DNA of 64,000 nt from Cyanobium sp. ATX 6F1 (GCF_024346315.1 NZ_JAGQCS010000004.1:1-64000), one strand, 5' to 3'; shown: positions 9,219 to 15,581, counted from the first letter of the stretch. A program made the numbers and translations. Notes: a model not told the origin generated them from the letters alone.

Positions 9219-11195
9219 TCAATCCCCAACGTGTTGCACCAGCCCCACGTCGAGGAGGTACCGCAGCACCAGGTACCCCGTCGAACCGAGCTGGTGTTCA
9301 GCCAAGAAGGCTTCCACCGCAGCTACGGGTTCCACAGACACCAGCCGTAGCGTCGACAGTTCTGTCAGGAGCCAACCCCAATCCAACGCGGGGTAGCGGT
9401 AGTCGTAGTGGTTGACCACGGCTCGGACGAGGTCGGCATCCAGTACACCTAGTACCCATTGCCGACTGGTTGCCTCAACACCACCAGCAGCAACCGCAGC
9501 AGTGGGGCCAACAGCCTGCACAGCAGCACCAGCATGGTCAGCGGTCACTACCGCACCAGCAGCTGCACCGTGGGTATCCACCGGCAGCCGCACGGGTCTT
9601 GCCGTCACCTTCGGAGGCACTGGGGCACGCTCCAGCTGGACGTAGTCCGGGTAGGCCGCCGTAAAGGCCGCCAAGTCAGCAAACATTGGATCACCCCACT
9701 GCGGGGCCACACAGGTGTGCTCGGCACGGGTGAGAGCCACGTACCGCAGATTGAGCTCCTCAACCGGCAACACCAGGGCCCCACGGAATCCTGTTGGTCC
9801 CCAAAGCTGGGGGGACAGAGTCGGGCCGTAGTCCCAACAAGCTGGGTAGTCAGTTGCACGCACCGACGATGCAGGCTCAGGCACGAAGACCACTGCAGGA
9901 AAATCGTCTGCCAGTTCCACCCGGCCGAATTCCAACCCTTTGGATTTGTGGGCCGTGGCCACGGCAACGTCAGCAGCAGCAGCGGTGTCGACTGCCAGGG
10001 TCTGCAGTTGGTGGATCTCCCCGGGGATTTCCCGCCAATTACGGTGCCGTTCGAGCAGACCTAACCAGGCCAGGAGATCACGGGAGTCCTGTTCGTGTGC
10101 GTAGGCCTCCAGTGCCGCGTAGCTCTGGAACCCGCGCAAAAACGGATCCTTCACGTCAGCAGTGGCTCCAACCCGTAGGCAGCAGACCTCCAGCAGCAGA
10201 TCCAACCGGTAACCGCTGATCCCGCCTACGAAATGGATGCGTTTGTGCTGGGTGACGAGTTCAACAGCGTGGGTGTACACCGCAGCGTTCCCACGGGCCA
10301 AGAACGCCGTCGTGCCCGTGGGTGCACCACGCCGTCCCCCGACCAGCTCACGGGTCTCCCGCTTGACCGACAGCAACCGGTTGGCGTCAGCTGCAATTCC
10401 AGCCCCAAAGCGGAAGCTTTCGGTGAGGTGCAGCAGTTGCCCGAGACCGGCGTCAGCCATGGCGTTAGTGGCGTACCGGAAGCTGTAGATCGACTGGTGC
10501 GGGTCTCCCACGAAGACTTTCGTGGCGGGTTGCCCCAGCACGACGGCCAACGTCACCGGATTGGAATCCTGGGCTTCGTCGAACAGGATCGTGTCGTACG
10601 GCAGTTGGGGACGGGTCAATTGGTAGACCTTTAAGTACCCCTCGTGAGTCATCGGCAGCCCGTGACCGGAATCCAGCTGCAACCGCCACAGCCGCTCCGC
10701 AGCCGCTAGGGCCACGGCGTTTTGCCGGGTCTGGTGCTGAGCAGCAAAGGCAACGAACTCCTCTGCAGCCGAGCAGTGCCATTGCACCAGCAGCTTGAGT
10801 GCCAGTGCGGCTTGCCCGAGTTCACCTGGTTCTTGGGGGTTGAGTCCCAGTGCCTTGGCGGCCTCGTCTGGTCGGACAGCACCCCGCAGCTTGTGCTGGT
10901 ACCGCCGACCGACAGCCTTGAAAGCAAGGGCATGGATCGTTGAGCAAGACACGTTGGCCGGGAATTTGCTGCCAGCCGCAGCTGCAATCGAGCGGTTGAA
11001 GGCCAGGTACAACATCCGCTTTGCGGGGCGGGCCAGGGCATACGCCTGCAGCACCGTGGTCTTGCCGGTGCCGGCAAAAGCCAGCACCCGGAGGTCACCG
11101 TTGGCGTCCACAACGGCCTGTTGTTCGTCCGTTAGTGGCGGCGGTGCGTGCGTTGGCAGCCGCCGGAGCAATTGTGTGGCGCGTGTGGTCGTCAT
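9219..11195 (-). CDS. SF1 UvrD/FBH1-like DNA helicase
   Basis: This 658-residue protein has the superfamily-1 motifs in order: Walker A FAGTGKTT near residue 45, the FBH1-like stretch MLYLAFNRSIAAAA, CSTIHALAFKAVGRRY (motif Ia), DEAQDSNP (Walker B), VFVGDPHQSIYSFR (motif III), and near the end YVALTRAEHTCV (motif VI). The similarity in wording is closer to FBH1/phage-type UvrD helicases than to chromosomal UvrD or PcrA. The C-terminal ~150 residues are extra and unrecognised. It would translocate 3'-5' on single-stranded DNA. It diverges from a putative HUH Rep gene across an 830-base spacer; rolling-circle replicons use such helicases, so the two may cooperate (inference). Confidence 0.8.
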   Translation of the reverse strand: MTTTRATQLLRRLPTHAPPPLTDEQQAVVDANGDLRVLAFAGTGKTTVLQAYALARPAKRMLYLAFNRSIAAAAGSKFPANVSCSTIHALAFKAVGRRYQHKLRGAVRPDEAAKALGLNPQEPGELGQAALALKLLVQWHCSAAEEFVAFAAQHQTRQNAVALAAAERLWRLQLDSGHGLPMTHEGYLKVYQLTRPQLPYDTILFDEAQDSNPVTLAVVLGQPATKVFVGDPHQSIYSFRYATNAMADAGLGQLLHLTESFRFGAGIAADANRLLSVKRETRELVGGRRGAPTGTTAFLARGNAAVYTHAVELVTQHKRIHFVGGISGYRLDLLLEVCCLRVGATADVKDPFLRGFQSYAALEAYAHEQDSRDLLAWLGLLERHRNWREIPGEIHQLQTLAVDTAAAADVAVATAHKSKGLEFGRVELADDFPAVVFVPEPASSVRATDYPACWDYGPTLSPQLWGPTGFRGALVLPVEELNLRYVALTRAEHTCVAPQWGDPMFADLAAFTAAYPDYVQLERAPVPPKVTARPVRLPVDTHGAAAGAVVTADHAGAAVQAVGPTAAVAAGGVEATSRQWVLGVLDADLVRAVVNHYDYRYPALDWGWLLTELSTLRLVSVEPVAAVEAFLAEHQLGSTGYLVLRYLLDVGLVQHVGD

Positions 11196-11332
11196 GGTTA
11201 GTAGATCAATGGGACAGGGCATGGTTTTCGAGCCACCCGTTCCCCTGCTGGGTGTCAGCTGCCGTGACTCCAGGGCAGCGGGGGATTAAGTCATTCCCAA
11301 AGGGGGGTGGGTGGTCAGAAACCACAAAATGA

Positions 11333-11480
11333 CCCCCTTTTCAGGGGGGCAAAAAATCTTGAAAGTCAGGAGTCGAACCCACAACACATGGCCTGTTTCC
11401 CCAGCAACCAACGGGGACAATCGTTCCGGGCTGGGAACTAGCCCCCGCGGGAAATGCCTGCTCAGCCGCTAACCCCTTTA
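11333..11480 (-). other. Structured minus-strand region with tRNA-like T-arm sequence
   Basis: Read on the minus strand, GTGGGTTCGACTCC (11369-11382) resembles a tRNA T-arm, but the T stem has a mismatch and wobbles and no acceptor or anticodon arm can be assembled. Nearby are complementary blocks TTCCCAGC and GCTGGGGAA, a GCTAA-AGGGG-TTAGC hairpin, and a CCCCC/GGGGG hairpin at 11333-11348 followed by ATTTTG. It could be a degenerate tRNA, an attachment-site relic or a non-coding RNA. Confidence 0.3.
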
Positions 11481-11519
11481 GCCGCAACATTTCTAAGCCC
11501 CACTAACCATCACCCCTTG

Positions 11520-12020
11520 CCATTCTATACACTTTGTGCTTACACTGTTTGAGTGGACCTCCACAGGTCACACCACCAGCACTGACAACACCGACACCAC
11601 CAACCCGCACGACGCCAGCTACCAAAACACATACCTCCCGCCGAACCGCAACCACCCAACGACGTAGCCCATAACTCTCTCAGCCACCACAACCTTCCAA
11701 CCACAGCCATACCCACAACACCTGACCCACACTGATCTCTGCCTGGAGTGCAGAACATCACTGGTCGGGCTGCAGGCACACGCGAGCCGCGTCAGTGGTG
11801 ATTGCTTTGCTGTGCCTGAGAGCAGGACCCAGATCAATACTCCATTACCAATTCATTCCACTCACTCCACCCACCACTCACTACTCCACTGCTACCACTA
11901 CCCACCACACCCACCACCACCGCATCTTTTTACCTGCTCGTTTTTCTTTTTTCCTTTTTTCCCACTTCCCAACCCACCACCAACCACCACCACGCCCCGT
12001 GCGTCCCTGTCCCCTGTCCC
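11520..12020. other. G-depleted, CAC-rich non-coding tract
   Basis: About 500 bases of + strand are almost devoid of G over long stretches and rich in CAC/CCA words, ending in a T/C-rich stretch (TTTTTCTTTTTTCCTTTTTT near 11940-11960). The strand asymmetry is extreme compared with the rest of the window. It sits between the helicase and the HUH-like Rep gene. No good gene is present. Confidence 0.7.
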
Positions 12021-12023
12021 CCC

Positions 12024-12689
12024 GTGTCGTACCGCTTCCACCAGACCAACACCAGCCCGCAACGCCAGGCCACCAGGGACTACCTGCAGTCGTACTTGGT
12101 CGACGGGTACCAACCTCGGTACCTCGTCACCCTGCATTACCGGTCACCCGCTGACGCCAATTGGGGCTCCAACCCCGCTGCCAGCACCTGGCAACAAACA
12201 CCCGCGTACAACTACTACACCCGCCGTAGAAACGACTACGACGCGGTCTCCCAGGACGCCACACACCTCAGGAATCTCCTGTTGGCCCGGTATTACCACG
12301 TGCCCACTCCCCGCCACTTGCGGCGGCTCGCCAGCCGCAACCGTGCCGCCGGTCACCCACCCCAGCCGTTGGTGCTGGTGTTCCACGAGCTCGGGTCCTT
12401 GCGTACCCAGTACCACTCACATCTGCTGCTGCCCCACCCACCCGGCACGGACCACACCGCGGGGTCACTCACCAGGGATCTCAACCACCACCTGCCGGCC
12501 CGAGCCAAATGCCTGTCCTGGCGGGGGATTCACGTGCGTGGCATTGCTGGCGGTACCGCTGCTTGTACTGCAGCAGACCTGGTCGGGGTGCTCGAACACC
12601 CGACTGCTGCTTTCTCGGTGGATTACCTCACCAAAGAAACCACGGGCCAGCACTTTTCGTTTGACCCAGTGGCGTCAGCTTTCACCTGA
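12024..12689 (+). CDS. Putative HUH endonuclease / rolling-circle Rep-like protein
   Basis: The 221-residue product is not a family I can name, but it shows the three ordered motifs of HUH Rep nucleases: motif I YLVTLHY (residues 33-39), the HUH motif YHSHLLLP (H131-S-H133), and a Y-x-x-K motif DYLTKE (Y201, K204). In such proteins the two histidines bind the metal and the tyrosine attacks DNA at the nick site. The start is a GTG with no obvious ribosome-binding site, after a pyrimidine-rich leader. Its neighbour is a divergent SF1 helicase. Replication initiator, relaxase or transposase-like roles are all possible. Confidence 0.5.
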   Translation: MSYRFHQTNTSPQRQATRDYLQSYLVDGYQPRYLVTLHYRSPADANWGSNPAASTWQQTPAYNYYTRRRNDYDAVSQDATHLRNLLLARYYHVPTPRHLRRLASRNRAAGHPPQPLVLVFHELGSLRTQYHSHLLLPHPPGTDHTAGSLTRDLNHHLPARAKCLSWRGIHVRGIAGGTAACTAADLVGVLEHPTAAFSVDYLTKETTGQHFSFDPVASAFT

Positions 12690-12978
12690 GCCCACCCCCG
12701 GCAGCGGTTTGTAGAGACTCCCCTGTTTCCCCTGTTTCCCCAGTTGGCCGCCTGGTTACCCACCCCTGGCTCCGTTTGCTACGACTGACCTGCGGGGCCG
12801 TGCAGACTGCCTTTGGTAAAAGGGGAATAGGGGAGCAGGGGAATCCAGAAACCCCAACTACGACACAGCAAGCACCTCCAGTGGTCCTGTTGGTTGTGCT
12901 TCTTGACCAGCTGGGCCACCCGCAATCTCTGCCAGCACGCAATGGTGATGGCACCATGGAACAGCTAGCCGCAGGCCA

Positions 12979-13646: not shown

Positions 13647-14159
13647 ATGACGACTTCAAAGAAGGGGACACTCAATGAGGTCGGCATGGCAGGAGAGTTC
13701 CATGTCCTAGCTCAGCTACTCCAGCGTGGATACAGTGCCCATCCCACTCTTGGTAACACGAAGGGGATGGACATCCTCGTTGTTGATCAGGAGACAGGCC
13801 ACATGCTTAAGGTGGAGGTCAAAACCGCATCCGACGCCATGCGGGCTCCCACCAAGCGCCTCTGGTGGTGTTGGACTCTTTCCAGCAGAGCTGAGCAGAT
13901 CGGAGCCCCGAATCTCGTCTACTGTTTCGTCCATCTGGGTGAAGTCGGCACCCTACCCCGCTTTTTTTTGGTGCCCAGTGAGGTGGTCGCGGAGCAATGC
14001 TCTCGAGAGCATCGTGAATGGATTGCCGCTGGGCCAGAGGATAGGCGGACAACTCGAACGGACACCGCTATCCGCAATTTCTGGTTCTACAACGATGAAA
14101 ACAATTATGAGAACAATTGGGAGGTCCTGCGGTGCAAGCTGGAGGACCGCACCGCATGA
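13647..14159 (+). CDS. PD-(D/E)XK nuclease-like protein
   Basis: The 170-residue product has the restriction-endonuclease-like core. Helix 1 carries GEFHVLAQLLQRGY (E17), followed by KGMDILVVD (D42) and LKVEVKTAS (E57, K59). This is the E...D...ExK arrangement seen in small Holliday-junction-resolvase-like and restriction-type nucleases. After residue 65 there is a tryptophan-rich segment (RLWWCWTL) and a PRFFLVPSEVV stretch, as in DUF4365/endonuclease-like proteins. It is the first gene of a four-gene cassette; its stop overlaps the next start (ATGA). Confidence 0.7.
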   Translation: MTTSKKGTLNEVGMAGEFHVLAQLLQRGYSAHPTLGNTKGMDILVVDQETGHMLKVEVKTASDAMRAPTKRLWWCWTLSSRAEQIGAPNLVYCFVHLGEVGTLPRFFLVPSEVVAEQCSREHREWIAAGPEDRRTTRTDTAIRNFWFYNDENNYENNWEVLRCKLEDRTA

Positions 14160-14605
14160 ATGCGCCCCCATGGCTGCTTGAACAGACAAACCAAGCCGTC
14201 TACACTAAGTGGCTGTTCCGCAAGGCCGCTGCTCTGCACAGGCGTGACAAGAAGCGTGGTAGCAAGTCCACTCGTGCTGAGTATGTTCAAGCCATCCATA
14301 AGGCTGTTGTCAAATCTAACGGTGTCGATCATTGGACTGGCGAAAGACTTCACTGGAACCTGATCGGGACTTACGACAACACGGAATCGAAGAAAGGCCG
14401 TAGTGCCTACAAGCGGGATTTCAATCTGCTACCCACGATCGACCACCGCATTGCCAATGCCGAGCCAGACTTTGTGATCTGCGGGTGGGGGATGAATGAT
14501 GCCAAGCACGACATGACTCCGCACCAGATGTACGAGCTATGTCAGGCCTTTATCAAGCACAATCGAGACAACCCCGACTGCGTAGCTCAGGAGTCGAGGT
14601 CTTGA
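14156..14605 (+). CDS. HNH-like hypothetical protein, second gene of the cassette
   Basis: The 149-residue product starts at an ATG that overlaps the nuclease stop (ATGA). The N-terminal half is helical and basic (KWLFRKAAALHRRDKKRGSK). The second half, DHWTGERLHWNLI, then FNLLPTIDH (H97) and FVICGWGMNDAKHD (N114, H118), resembles the His...Asn...His order of HNH-type nucleases, without visible zinc-knuckle CxxC pairs. The nuclease assignment is therefore tentative. Tight coupling to a PD-(D/E)XK gene supports a DNA-related job. Confidence 0.5.
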   Translation: MNAPPWLLEQTNQAVYTKWLFRKAAALHRRDKKRGSKSTRAEYVQAIHKAVVKSNGVDHWTGERLHWNLIGTYDNTESKKGRSAYKRDFNLLPTIDHRIANAEPDFVICGWGMNDAKHDMTPHQMYELCQAFIKHNRDNPDCVAQESRS

Positions 14606-14802
14606 GCACGTTCGCCCATGCCCAGCAGCAATTCGCGCTTCAGCTACCCCACACCGAAACGGCCAGACGGTTGCGGAAGCTGTACGAATCCGCGACAGAT
14701 CCAAAAGAACGCGAAATGATTGGGTGGAGCTTTGAGTCAGTCATGGTGACATGCCCCTTAGGTGAGGTTGGACAGATGCGGGAGGCTTGGGAGGGATGTT
14801 GA
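14602..14802 (+). CDS. Small helical protein, third gene of the cassette
   Basis: The 66-residue frame begins at TTG (14602), which overlaps the previous stop as TTGA, and ends 7 bases inside the next gene. The product is helical and charged (TETARRLRKLYESATDPKEREMIGW) with no recognised domain. An ATG at 14539 exists, but the additional residues overlap the previous gene heavily. Position and overlaps argue that it is a genuine coupled member of the operon. Confidence 0.5.
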   Translation: MSTFAHAQQQFALQLPHTETARRLRKLYESATDPKEREMIGWSFESVMVTCPLGEVGQMREAWEGC

Positions 14803-15581
14803 TTCGCTATACCGCTACCAGCAACCTTGGCACCATTGATACCGTCGACCTATACCACCAGCTCGCTGATGGCGTGCCGTGCAGCCCAGGTTCAATTCGA
14901 CCTGAGTTTGTTCTCTACCAGGACAAGAACTTAAAGGCAGTGTGGGCGCCGTTTGACCACATCAACAGCAGCGCCAGGATTGCACTTGTAGGCATCACTC
15001 CTGGCTGGACACAGGCACAGACCGCTTATTCCGTTGCCAAGCAGGCACTCGCGGAAGGTTTGGACTACAGCACAGCTTGCAAACAAGCCCACTCACAGGC
15101 AGCTTTTGTTGGGTCGATGCGGACAAATCTAGTCAAGATGCTTGATCAGCTCGGGGTCAACAAGGCGTTCAACATCCAGACCACCGGTGACATTCTCGGG
15201 AAGCCTGATCCCCGCGTGCATGCAACATCCGCGTTGCGTTACCCCGTGTTTTGCCACAAGAGCAGGGAGTGGAAGAACTACGGGGGGCATCAGCCAGACG
15301 CACTCAGCATTGGTTTCTTTCAGACCATGCTGGACACGCTGCTAACAGAAGAACTTGCCTCGCTGCCTGCCGGGTTGTTGATTGTGCCCCTGGGGATTGC
15401 TGTTGAACGGTTCGTCAACTACGCCCTGCGTGACCGCCAACTGCATGCCACGATCTTGCAGGGCTTTCCCCATCCATCAGGCGCCAACACAGGCAGGCCC
15501 GCCCAATTCGAGGCCAACAGGGAAGCGTTAAGCCATGCGGTTGCCGATTGGAAGGAATCGTCCTTGATGCAATCAACCTGA
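14796..15581 (+). CDS. Uracil-DNA-glycosylase-fold-like protein, fourth gene of the cassette
   Basis: The 261-residue product has two motifs in the order and spacing of the UDG superfamily: RIALVGITPGW (G66-I-T-P-G70), comparable with GINPG of MUG/TDG or GMNPG of SMUG1, and FPHPSGAN (H226-P-S), comparable with the DNA-intercalating motif 2. The usual catalytic Asn or Asp in motif 1 is a Thr here, so activity or substrate may differ. The start overlaps the end of the small gene. A base-excising or base-sensing partner for the two nuclease-like proteins is the natural inference. Confidence 0.55.
   Translation: MLIRYTATSNLGTIDTVDLYHQLADGVPCSPGSIRPEFVLYQDKNLKAVWAPFDHINSSARIALVGITPGWTQAQTAYSVAKQALAEGLDYSTACKQAHSQAAFVGSMRTNLVKMLDQLGVNKAFNIQTTGDILGKPDPRVHATSALRYPVFCHKSREWKNYGGHQPDALSIGFFQTMLDTLLTEELASLPAGLLIVPLGIAVERFVNYALRDRQLHATILQGFPHPSGANTGRPAQFEANREALSHAVADWKESSLMQST

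What the first reader, a model, noticed from the sequence alone, without database searches (positions are those of the whole stretch)
9219..12743. Candidate rolling-circle replication module: HUH-like Rep, FBH1/UvrD-like helicase and a G-poor origin-like spacer
The 221-aa protein has YLVTLHY, YHSHLLLP and DYLTKE in the order of Rep motifs I-III, and the divergent neighbour is an SF1 helicase of the kind used by rolling-circle replicons. The 830-base spacer has extreme strand asymmetry, a hairpin region and a flanking 13-bp repeat. If correct, this is a degenerate or integrated cyanobacterial plasmid or satellite.
Basis: partly seen in the sequence, partly recalled or inferred. Interest (0 to 1): 0.65.

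Follow-up and report, generated by a model that had tools for sequence, protein, structure and literature searches.

The report
Chromosomal HUH replication nuclease with helicase
A cyanobacterial chromosome carries a small DNA-nicking "replication starter" enzyme paired back-to-back with its own DNA-unwinding helicase; relatives of the enzyme sit in small jumping DNA elements, so this looks like the replication kit of a poorly described family of mobile elements, although nothing shows that this copy still moves.

Summary
The 221-aa protein (12024-12689 +) is an HUH endonuclease: all 14 aligned relatives keep the motif I His, HxH and YxxK, and nearly all the Glu; predicted models match viral Reps best. 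The helicase (9219-11195 -) is FBH1-like SF1. In a sample of 400 related genomes a near-full-length helicase occurs in four; in three it lies divergently beside this Rep across 830-980 bp. In two congeneric genomes the 5.25-kb helicase-Rep-gene3 block is 83% identical but sits in different surroundings, so it has moved. Other Reps of the family sit beside tyrosine integrases, in five cases between 111-292 bp direct repeats: small integrative elements, one of 3.25 kb. The family was found almost only in Cyanobiaceae. In the window the module lies in a chromosome, without integrase or flanking repeats; the sister species keeps only a Rep relic. The strand asymmetry is real but absent from relatives' spacers. 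The hairpin at 11725-11845 is not above chance; a structured stretch at 11225-11375 is. Rolling-circle activity and the origin are inferred, not shown.

The parts
12024..12689 (+). HUH endonuclease (Rep-type, single catalytic Tyr), 221 aa, GTG start; motif I His38, Glu122, HSH 131-133, Tyr201-xx-Lys204
   Evidence: invariant residues; model pLDDT 78, pTM 0.80; AAV Rep Z 7.3 top row
9219..11195 (-). FBH1-like SF1 helicase, 658 aa (ORF extends to 11222), C-terminal ~150-aa extension shared with the two Rep-linked orthologues
   Evidence: adjacent and divergent to Rep in 3 genomes
11196..12023 (.). divergent intergenic spacer, C-rich/G-poor on +; probable site of both promoters and (inferred) of the origin
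   Evidence: spacing of 830-980 bp kept in G101 and G141
11225..11375 (.). structured segment near the helicase start (imperfect long stem plus CCCCCTTTTCAGGGGGG hairpin); weak candidate for origin or regulatory site
   Evidence: z -3.06, 0 of 200 shuffles; z -3.5
11392..11404 (+). 13-bp repeat CCTGTTTCCCCAG, copy 1
12722..12743 (+). two overlapping copies of the 13-bp repeat just after the Rep gene

Best explanation
The locus is the DNA-processing module of a mobile genetic element of picocyanobacteria (Cyanobiaceae), now resident in a chromosome and probably no longer autonomous. Proposed working: the HUH nuclease binds a site in or near the spacer, nicks one strand and stays joined to the 5' end through Tyr201; the divergently encoded FBH1-like helicase is loaded at the nick and unwinds the duplex, and polymerase extends the 3' end, so that one strand is displaced and re-closed (rolling-circle-type replication, or release of a single-stranded copy for transposition or transfer). 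Shown here: the catalytic residues and predicted fold, the conserved divergent pairing with the helicase, a changed position of the block between genomes, and membership of the Rep in a family carried by integrative elements. Inferred: nicking, origin position, helicase loading and rolling-circle replication.
For: HUH catalytic set invariant in 14 sequences. Models of the window Rep and of a 180-aa relative match HUH Reps best (AAV2 Rep Z 7.3, 142 aligned, 3.9 A; SIRV1 ORF119 Z 8.6, 113 aligned, 3.4 A; AAV2 Rep68 Z 7.8); weak profile match to NS1 (E 0.08) and REP_ORF2-G2P (E 0.015 in two members). Helicase found near full length in 4 of 400 family genomes and beside Rep in 3; its partner in the fourth is a VapE-type primase; relatives at 51-52% are on two IMG/VR phage-like contigs and more distant ones on plasmids. 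The 5.25-kb block of G101 and G141 has non-orthologous flanks, with dN/dS of 0.33 (Rep) and 0.25 (helicase). 16 of 28 Rep loci have a tyrosine integrase within 7 kb; five integrase-Rep pairs lie between 111-292-bp direct repeats of a glycosylase-like gene. A second Rep in G101 and G141 is divergent from an ArdC-type antirestriction protein. Host SF1 helicases serve known rolling-circle replicons: PcrA for pT181 (PMC5703833), UvrD for Pf (PMC4863604).
Against: No integrase, att repeats or second copy found in the window genome; the sister species has only a Rep relic and no helicase. No plasmid, phage or IMG/VR record searched carries this Rep, so extrachromosomal replication is unobserved. The spacer has no perfect stem of 9 bp or more and its skew is not shared by relatives. 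FBH1 in eukaryotes is chiefly an anti-recombinase (general knowledge; PMC4148199), so the helicase could act on recombination instead.
Confidence: 0.72

Rival explanations
1. Single-strand transposon: the HUH nuclease nicks at element ends and the helicase peels off one strand, which is inserted elsewhere (IS91/Helitron-like, but as two genes). The module moves itself, without an integrase.
For: The G101/G141 block changes location with no integrase and no flanking repeats. Its helicase-side end is a conserved non-coding stretch with a long hairpin, of which partial solo copies exist elsewhere in these genomes.
Against: No shared terminal sequence or hairpin was found at the window module; the hairpin repeat is absent from the window. 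The block's other end simply stops at a gene's stop codon. No full second copy was found in these genomes. The catalytic motif has one conserved Tyr, whereas IS91 and Helitron use two. Solo-copy boundaries differ, so the repeat may be an unrelated family.
Confidence: 0.17
2. Domesticated or decaying remnant: the genes came from a mobile element but now serve a host role, such as recombination control by the FBH1-like helicase, or none.
For: Chromosomal position in a contig with core genes, no mobility genes nearby, Rep relic in the sister species, broken Rep copies in other genomes.
Against: Both window genes are full length with all catalytic motifs; in G101/G141 both are under purifying selection; the pair is patchy and changes position, unlike a host function.
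Confidence: 0.2
3. Anti-phage defence pair (nuclease plus UvrD-type helicase, as in Gabija).
For: PADLOC GajB models hit the helicase; ArdC and CRISPR-Cas-like genes lie near relatives.
Against: The GajB hits cover generic SF1 helicase motifs only; the nuclease is HUH, not a GajA-type nuclease; the Rep has no PADLOC hit; Rep relatives pair with integrases.
Confidence: 0.05

Closest known systems
Integrated HUH-Rep plasmids of bacteria (Kazlauskas et al. 2019, PMC6668415: pCRESS groups and unassigned integrated-MGE clusters)
   Same: HUH Rep with a YxxK motif III, found mainly in site-specifically integrated chromosomal elements bounded by direct repeats
   Different: pCRESS Reps have a fused helicase domain; here the Rep is a stand-alone nuclease and, in three genomes, the helicase is a separate divergent SF1 gene. 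A text search of that paper found no mention of cyanobacteria
Stand-alone Rep replicons that borrow host SF1 helicases (pT181 with PcrA, PMC5703833; Pf with UvrD, PMC4863604)
   Same: a nicking initiator working with an SF1A helicase is the expected mechanism
   Different: there the helicase is the host's PcrA/UvrD; here an FBH1-branch helicase is encoded beside the Rep
Helitron RepHel (PMC6213432)
   Same: HUH nuclease combined with an SF1 helicase
   Different: RepHel is one fused protein with two catalytic Tyr and a Pif1-type helicase, eukaryotic; here two genes, one Tyr, FBH1-type, bacterial
Eukaryotic FBH1 (F-box DNA helicase 1)
   Same: best solved-structure relative of the helicase by sequence profile, E 3e-83
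   Different: aligned only over the helicase core; the window protein has its own C-terminal extension; an F-box was not specifically looked for and none was reported by Pfam
AAV Rep / parvovirus NS1 nuclease domain, SIRV1 ORF119
   Same: closest folds (Z 7-8.6)
   Different: about 12% sequence identity; similarity of fold, not evidence of close kinship

Membership tests
HUH endonuclease superfamily | motif II HUH/HxH metal site | tested here: met
   H131 and H133 invariant; the middle residue is Ser/Thr/Gly/Val, not always bulky-hydrophobic
HUH endonuclease superfamily | catalytic Tyr in motif III (YxxK) | tested here: met
   Y201 and K204 invariant in 14 sequences
HUH endonuclease superfamily | HUH fold | tested here: met
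   two predicted models; HUH Reps head both lists, Z 7.3 and 8.6, with unrelated ferredoxin-like folds below at Z 5-7. Support from the fold alone is moderate because the margin is small
HUH endonuclease superfamily | Mg/Mn-dependent ssDNA nicking with 5'-phosphotyrosine | not testable with these tools
   needs biochemistry
Rolling-circle replicon | double-strand origin with nick site | tested here: inconclusive
   no significant hairpin at 11725-11845; a structured stretch at 11225-11375 is not verified as an origin
Rolling-circle replicon | extrachromosomal or excised circular form | not testable with these tools
   no reads; no plasmid or phage record matches the Rep
Integrative element (integrase type) | integrase in the element | tested here: not met
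   none found in the 64-kb window with five integrases from related loci as queries; met in 16 of 28 related Rep loci within 7 kb
Integrative element (integrase type) | flanking att direct repeats | tested here: not met
   none within 9 kb of the window module; met for five relatives
FBH1-like SF1 helicase | SF1 motifs and closest similarity to FBH1 | tested here: met
PcrA/UvrD/Rep orthologues | NCBIfam equivalog cut-offs | tested here: not met
   scores 16-28 bits against cut-offs over 900
Pfam/NCBIfam Rep families | score above a curated cut-off | tested here: not met
   no hit for the window protein; REP_ORF2-G2P only at E 0.015 in two relatives
Helitron/IS91 | two catalytic Tyr; fused helicase (Helitron) | tested here: not met
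   one invariant Tyr in motif III, separate helicase gene
Helitron/IS91 | defined terminal sequences | tested here: inconclusive
   no shared ends could be defined from two insertions

The most novel reading that the evidence does not exclude
A bacterial class of single-strand mobile elements that carries its own FBH1-type helicase as a separate, divergently transcribed partner of a one-tyrosine HUH nuclease: a two-gene counterpart of the Helitron RepHel that moves without an integrase.
Probability: 0.17. Interest if true: 0.75.

Novelty: new variant of a known kind. Interest (0 to 1): 0.5.

Why it matters
Prokaryotic HUH replicons are generally thought to borrow a host helicase; a study of rolling-circle elements states that all known prokaryotic two-tyrosine Reps lack a helicase and that prokaryotic viruses encode only the nuclease (PMC6213432). 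A conserved Rep-helicase gene pair, and a Rep family not covered by the curated libraries searched and found almost only in picocyanobacteria, would add a mobile-element lineage to an ecologically dominant group, and would offer a natural test of how a nicking enzyme and its own helicase cooperate.

Tried and rejected
Rfam over the window, L018 and L020, and at relaxed threshold over the spacer: no RNA family. The spacer stretch resembling a tRNA T-arm (GGAGTCGAACCC, near 11370) was considered as an att site: no tRNA in the window and no second copy in the genome. Perfect stems of 9 bp or more in the window spacer: none; the perfect 24-bp palindrome TTCTCCATGCGCTAGCATGGAGAA upstream of Rep in G101 and G141 has no counterpart in the window. 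Direct or inverted repeats flanking the window, G101 or G141 modules: none. A tRNA-Ser att duplicate for the G139 locus: not found within 12.8 kb. Repeat family at the helicase-side end of G101/G141: absent from the window. Rep in Cyanobacteria outside the family: one marginal match only. Foldseek against PDB gave no E below 0.03, so the fold claim rests on the structural re-alignment and the conserved residues. The Fisher test used approximate counts from two overlapping samples and is not relied on. dN/dS for the third gene failed because of a frame error in my coordinates and was not repeated.

Full report
What is there. The window is the first 64 kb of a 335-kb contig of a 2.96-Mb genome. 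It contains valS, ligA and mnmG, so this is chromosome. At 12024-12689 (+) lies a 221-aa ORF; at 9219-11222 (-) a helicase ORF; between them about 830 bases. Both ORFs are intact.

The Rep. Pfam, PHROGs, NCBIfam and PADLOC give no significant hit for it, and no phage, plasmid or IMG/VR record was found that encodes a relative (the IMG/VR scan finds close relatives only). Whole-genome searches found relatives in 15 of 400 genomes of the same family with the single protein, and in 23 of 399 with a profile. Across the phylum only one marginal match outside the family appeared among 386 genomes. Across 14 aligned members H38, H131, H133, Y201, K204, D214 and S218 are invariant and E122 nearly so. 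These are the motif I His, the HxH and the YxxK of HUH Reps (motifs as described in PMC6668415). The AlphaFold2 model (pLDDT 78, pTM 0.80) aligns best with AAV2 Rep (Z 7.3, 3.9 A over 142 residues), then SIRV1 ORF119, MVM NS1, Helitron, wheat dwarf virus Rep and RepB. A second model, of a 180-aa relative (pLDDT 84), gives SIRV1 ORF119 at Z 8.6 and AAV Rep at 7.8. Unrelated ferredoxin-like folds follow not far below, so the fold alone would be moderate evidence; together with the invariant catalytic residues I regard the HUH assignment as secure. Activity is untested.

The helicase. Its profile matches FBH1 among solved structures (E 3e-83), UvrD and AddA only weakly. NCBIfam scores for UvrD, PcrA and Rep are far below their cut-offs. 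Similar cores occur on many plasmids and phages. In a 400-genome sample of the family it occurs near full length in four genomes and as a fragment in a fifth. Two IMG/VR contigs with tailed-phage-like genes (recognised by eye, not by family search) carry 51-52% identical helicases.

Movement. G101 and G141 share a 5.25-kb block (helicase, spacer, Rep and a third gene of about 185 aa) at about 83% identity, while the surrounding DNA does not match. One flank of G101 is found in G141 on another contig; the right flank of G141 is found in G101 far from its block. The block has therefore changed position, unless the flanks were rearranged independently. Rep and helicase show dN/dS of 0.33 and 0.25 between the two, so both were maintained. 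The third gene also follows a Rep in G285; it has no Pfam match.

The wider family. Sixteen of 28 Rep loci inspected have a tyrosine integrase, or remains of one, within 7 kb; in ten it ends about 240-700 bp upstream of Rep on the same strand. In five genomes (G125, G259, G360, G264, G248) the pair lies between direct repeats of 111-292 bp, 83-98% identical, one copy being a fragment and the other part of a full 3-methyladenine-DNA-glycosylase-like gene (the gene was named from its sequence, not by a family search). In G360 the element is about 3.25 kb and holds essentially the integrase and a frameshifted Rep. A second Rep in G101 and G141 stands divergent from an ArdC-type protein. A further locus (G139) has an integrase-like gene and tRNA-Ser nearby, but no second att copy was found. 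These contexts place the Rep family in integrative mobile elements. A tree groups the window Rep with those of G101 and G141 and their second Reps at 82/97 support, without resolving closer order.

This copy. The window has no integrase and no flanking repeats within 9 kb; no second copy of the Rep or the spacer is found in the genome. The only other genome of the genus in the collection has a Rep relic and no helicase. The module is thus best described as a chromosomal resident derived from a mobile element, of unknown activity.

The spacer. The G-poor asymmetry is the strongest in the window (skew -0.44, 5.8 SD) but continues into the Rep gene and is absent in the two orthologous spacers. 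It should not be read as an origin signature. The 11725-11845 stretch is within chance; 11225-11375 folds better than all 200 shuffles and scores z -3.5 in a sliding scan (about 48 windows tested, so moderately significant). All three spacers share the 10-mer GATTAAGTCA at a similar distance from the helicase in the alignment. In the integrase-linked elements a conserved CTTACTC-GGTGGATT-GAGAAG hairpin lies upstream of Rep: a plausible nick site there, with no counterpart seen in the window.

Mechanism. From established biology, host PcrA or UvrD unwinds DNA at a Rep nick (PMC5703833; PMC4863604). I propose that here the element supplies its own FBH1-like helicase for that step. The link is genomic (pairing), not biochemical. 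Alternatives are single-strand transposition, a decayed or domesticated remnant, and defence.

Verdict. Novelty: a new variant of a known kind, because HUH Reps in integrated elements are known, while this Rep family and its separate helicase partner are not covered by the libraries and papers searched here.

Noticed in passing
L087 (G360), L031 (G259), L027 (G125), L089 (G264), L090 (G248): Small integrative elements (3.2-5.2 kb) of tyrosine integrase plus HUH Rep, inserted in a DNA-glycosylase-like gene with 111-292-bp direct repeats; the smallest, about 3.25 kb, carries little besides these two genes. Several copies are broken.
   Followed up: partly
L027, L029, L031, L033, L087: about 100-150 bp upstream of Rep: Conserved hairpin CTTACTC-GGTGGATT-GAGAAG between integrase and Rep, a candidate nick site.
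   Followed up: no
L020 5577-5796; also L071, L072, L073, L074, L075, L076: Interspersed repeat of about 220 bp with a constant outer stem and a variable inner hairpin, several copies or fragments in G101 and G141, one at the helicase-side end of the mobile block.
   Followed up: partly
L019 9353-12057 and L021 9742-12437: Second HUH Rep, divergent from an ArdC/MPTase-PolyVal antirestriction protein, in a block shared by G101 and G141.
   Followed up: partly
L103 6012-11243: In Synechococcus sp. ATX 2A4 the FBH1-like helicase sits beside a VapE-type primase, with genes resembling Cas3 and Cas8e a few kb away (the Cas genes by eye only).
   Followed up: partly
L185 7854-10130 and L186 from 7998: IMG/VR phage-like contigs carrying helicases 51-52% identical to the window's.
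   Followed up: partly
L026 about 9353-9874: Degraded Rep (C-terminal half only, catalytic motifs lost) in the only other genome of the genus held.
   Followed up: yes
window 11451-12700: Strong C-over-G strand asymmetry covering spacer and Rep gene, not shared by the two orthologous spacers and unexplained.
   Followed up: partly
window 13647-15581: Three uncharacterised genes next to the module with weak PDDEXK, SGNH-hydrolase and uracil-DNA-glycosylase-like Pfam matches (E 0.005-0.02).
   Followed up: no
L018 19489-19901: A sequence of about 412 bp present in some 40 near-identical copies in G101, probably part of an insertion sequence.
   Followed up: no
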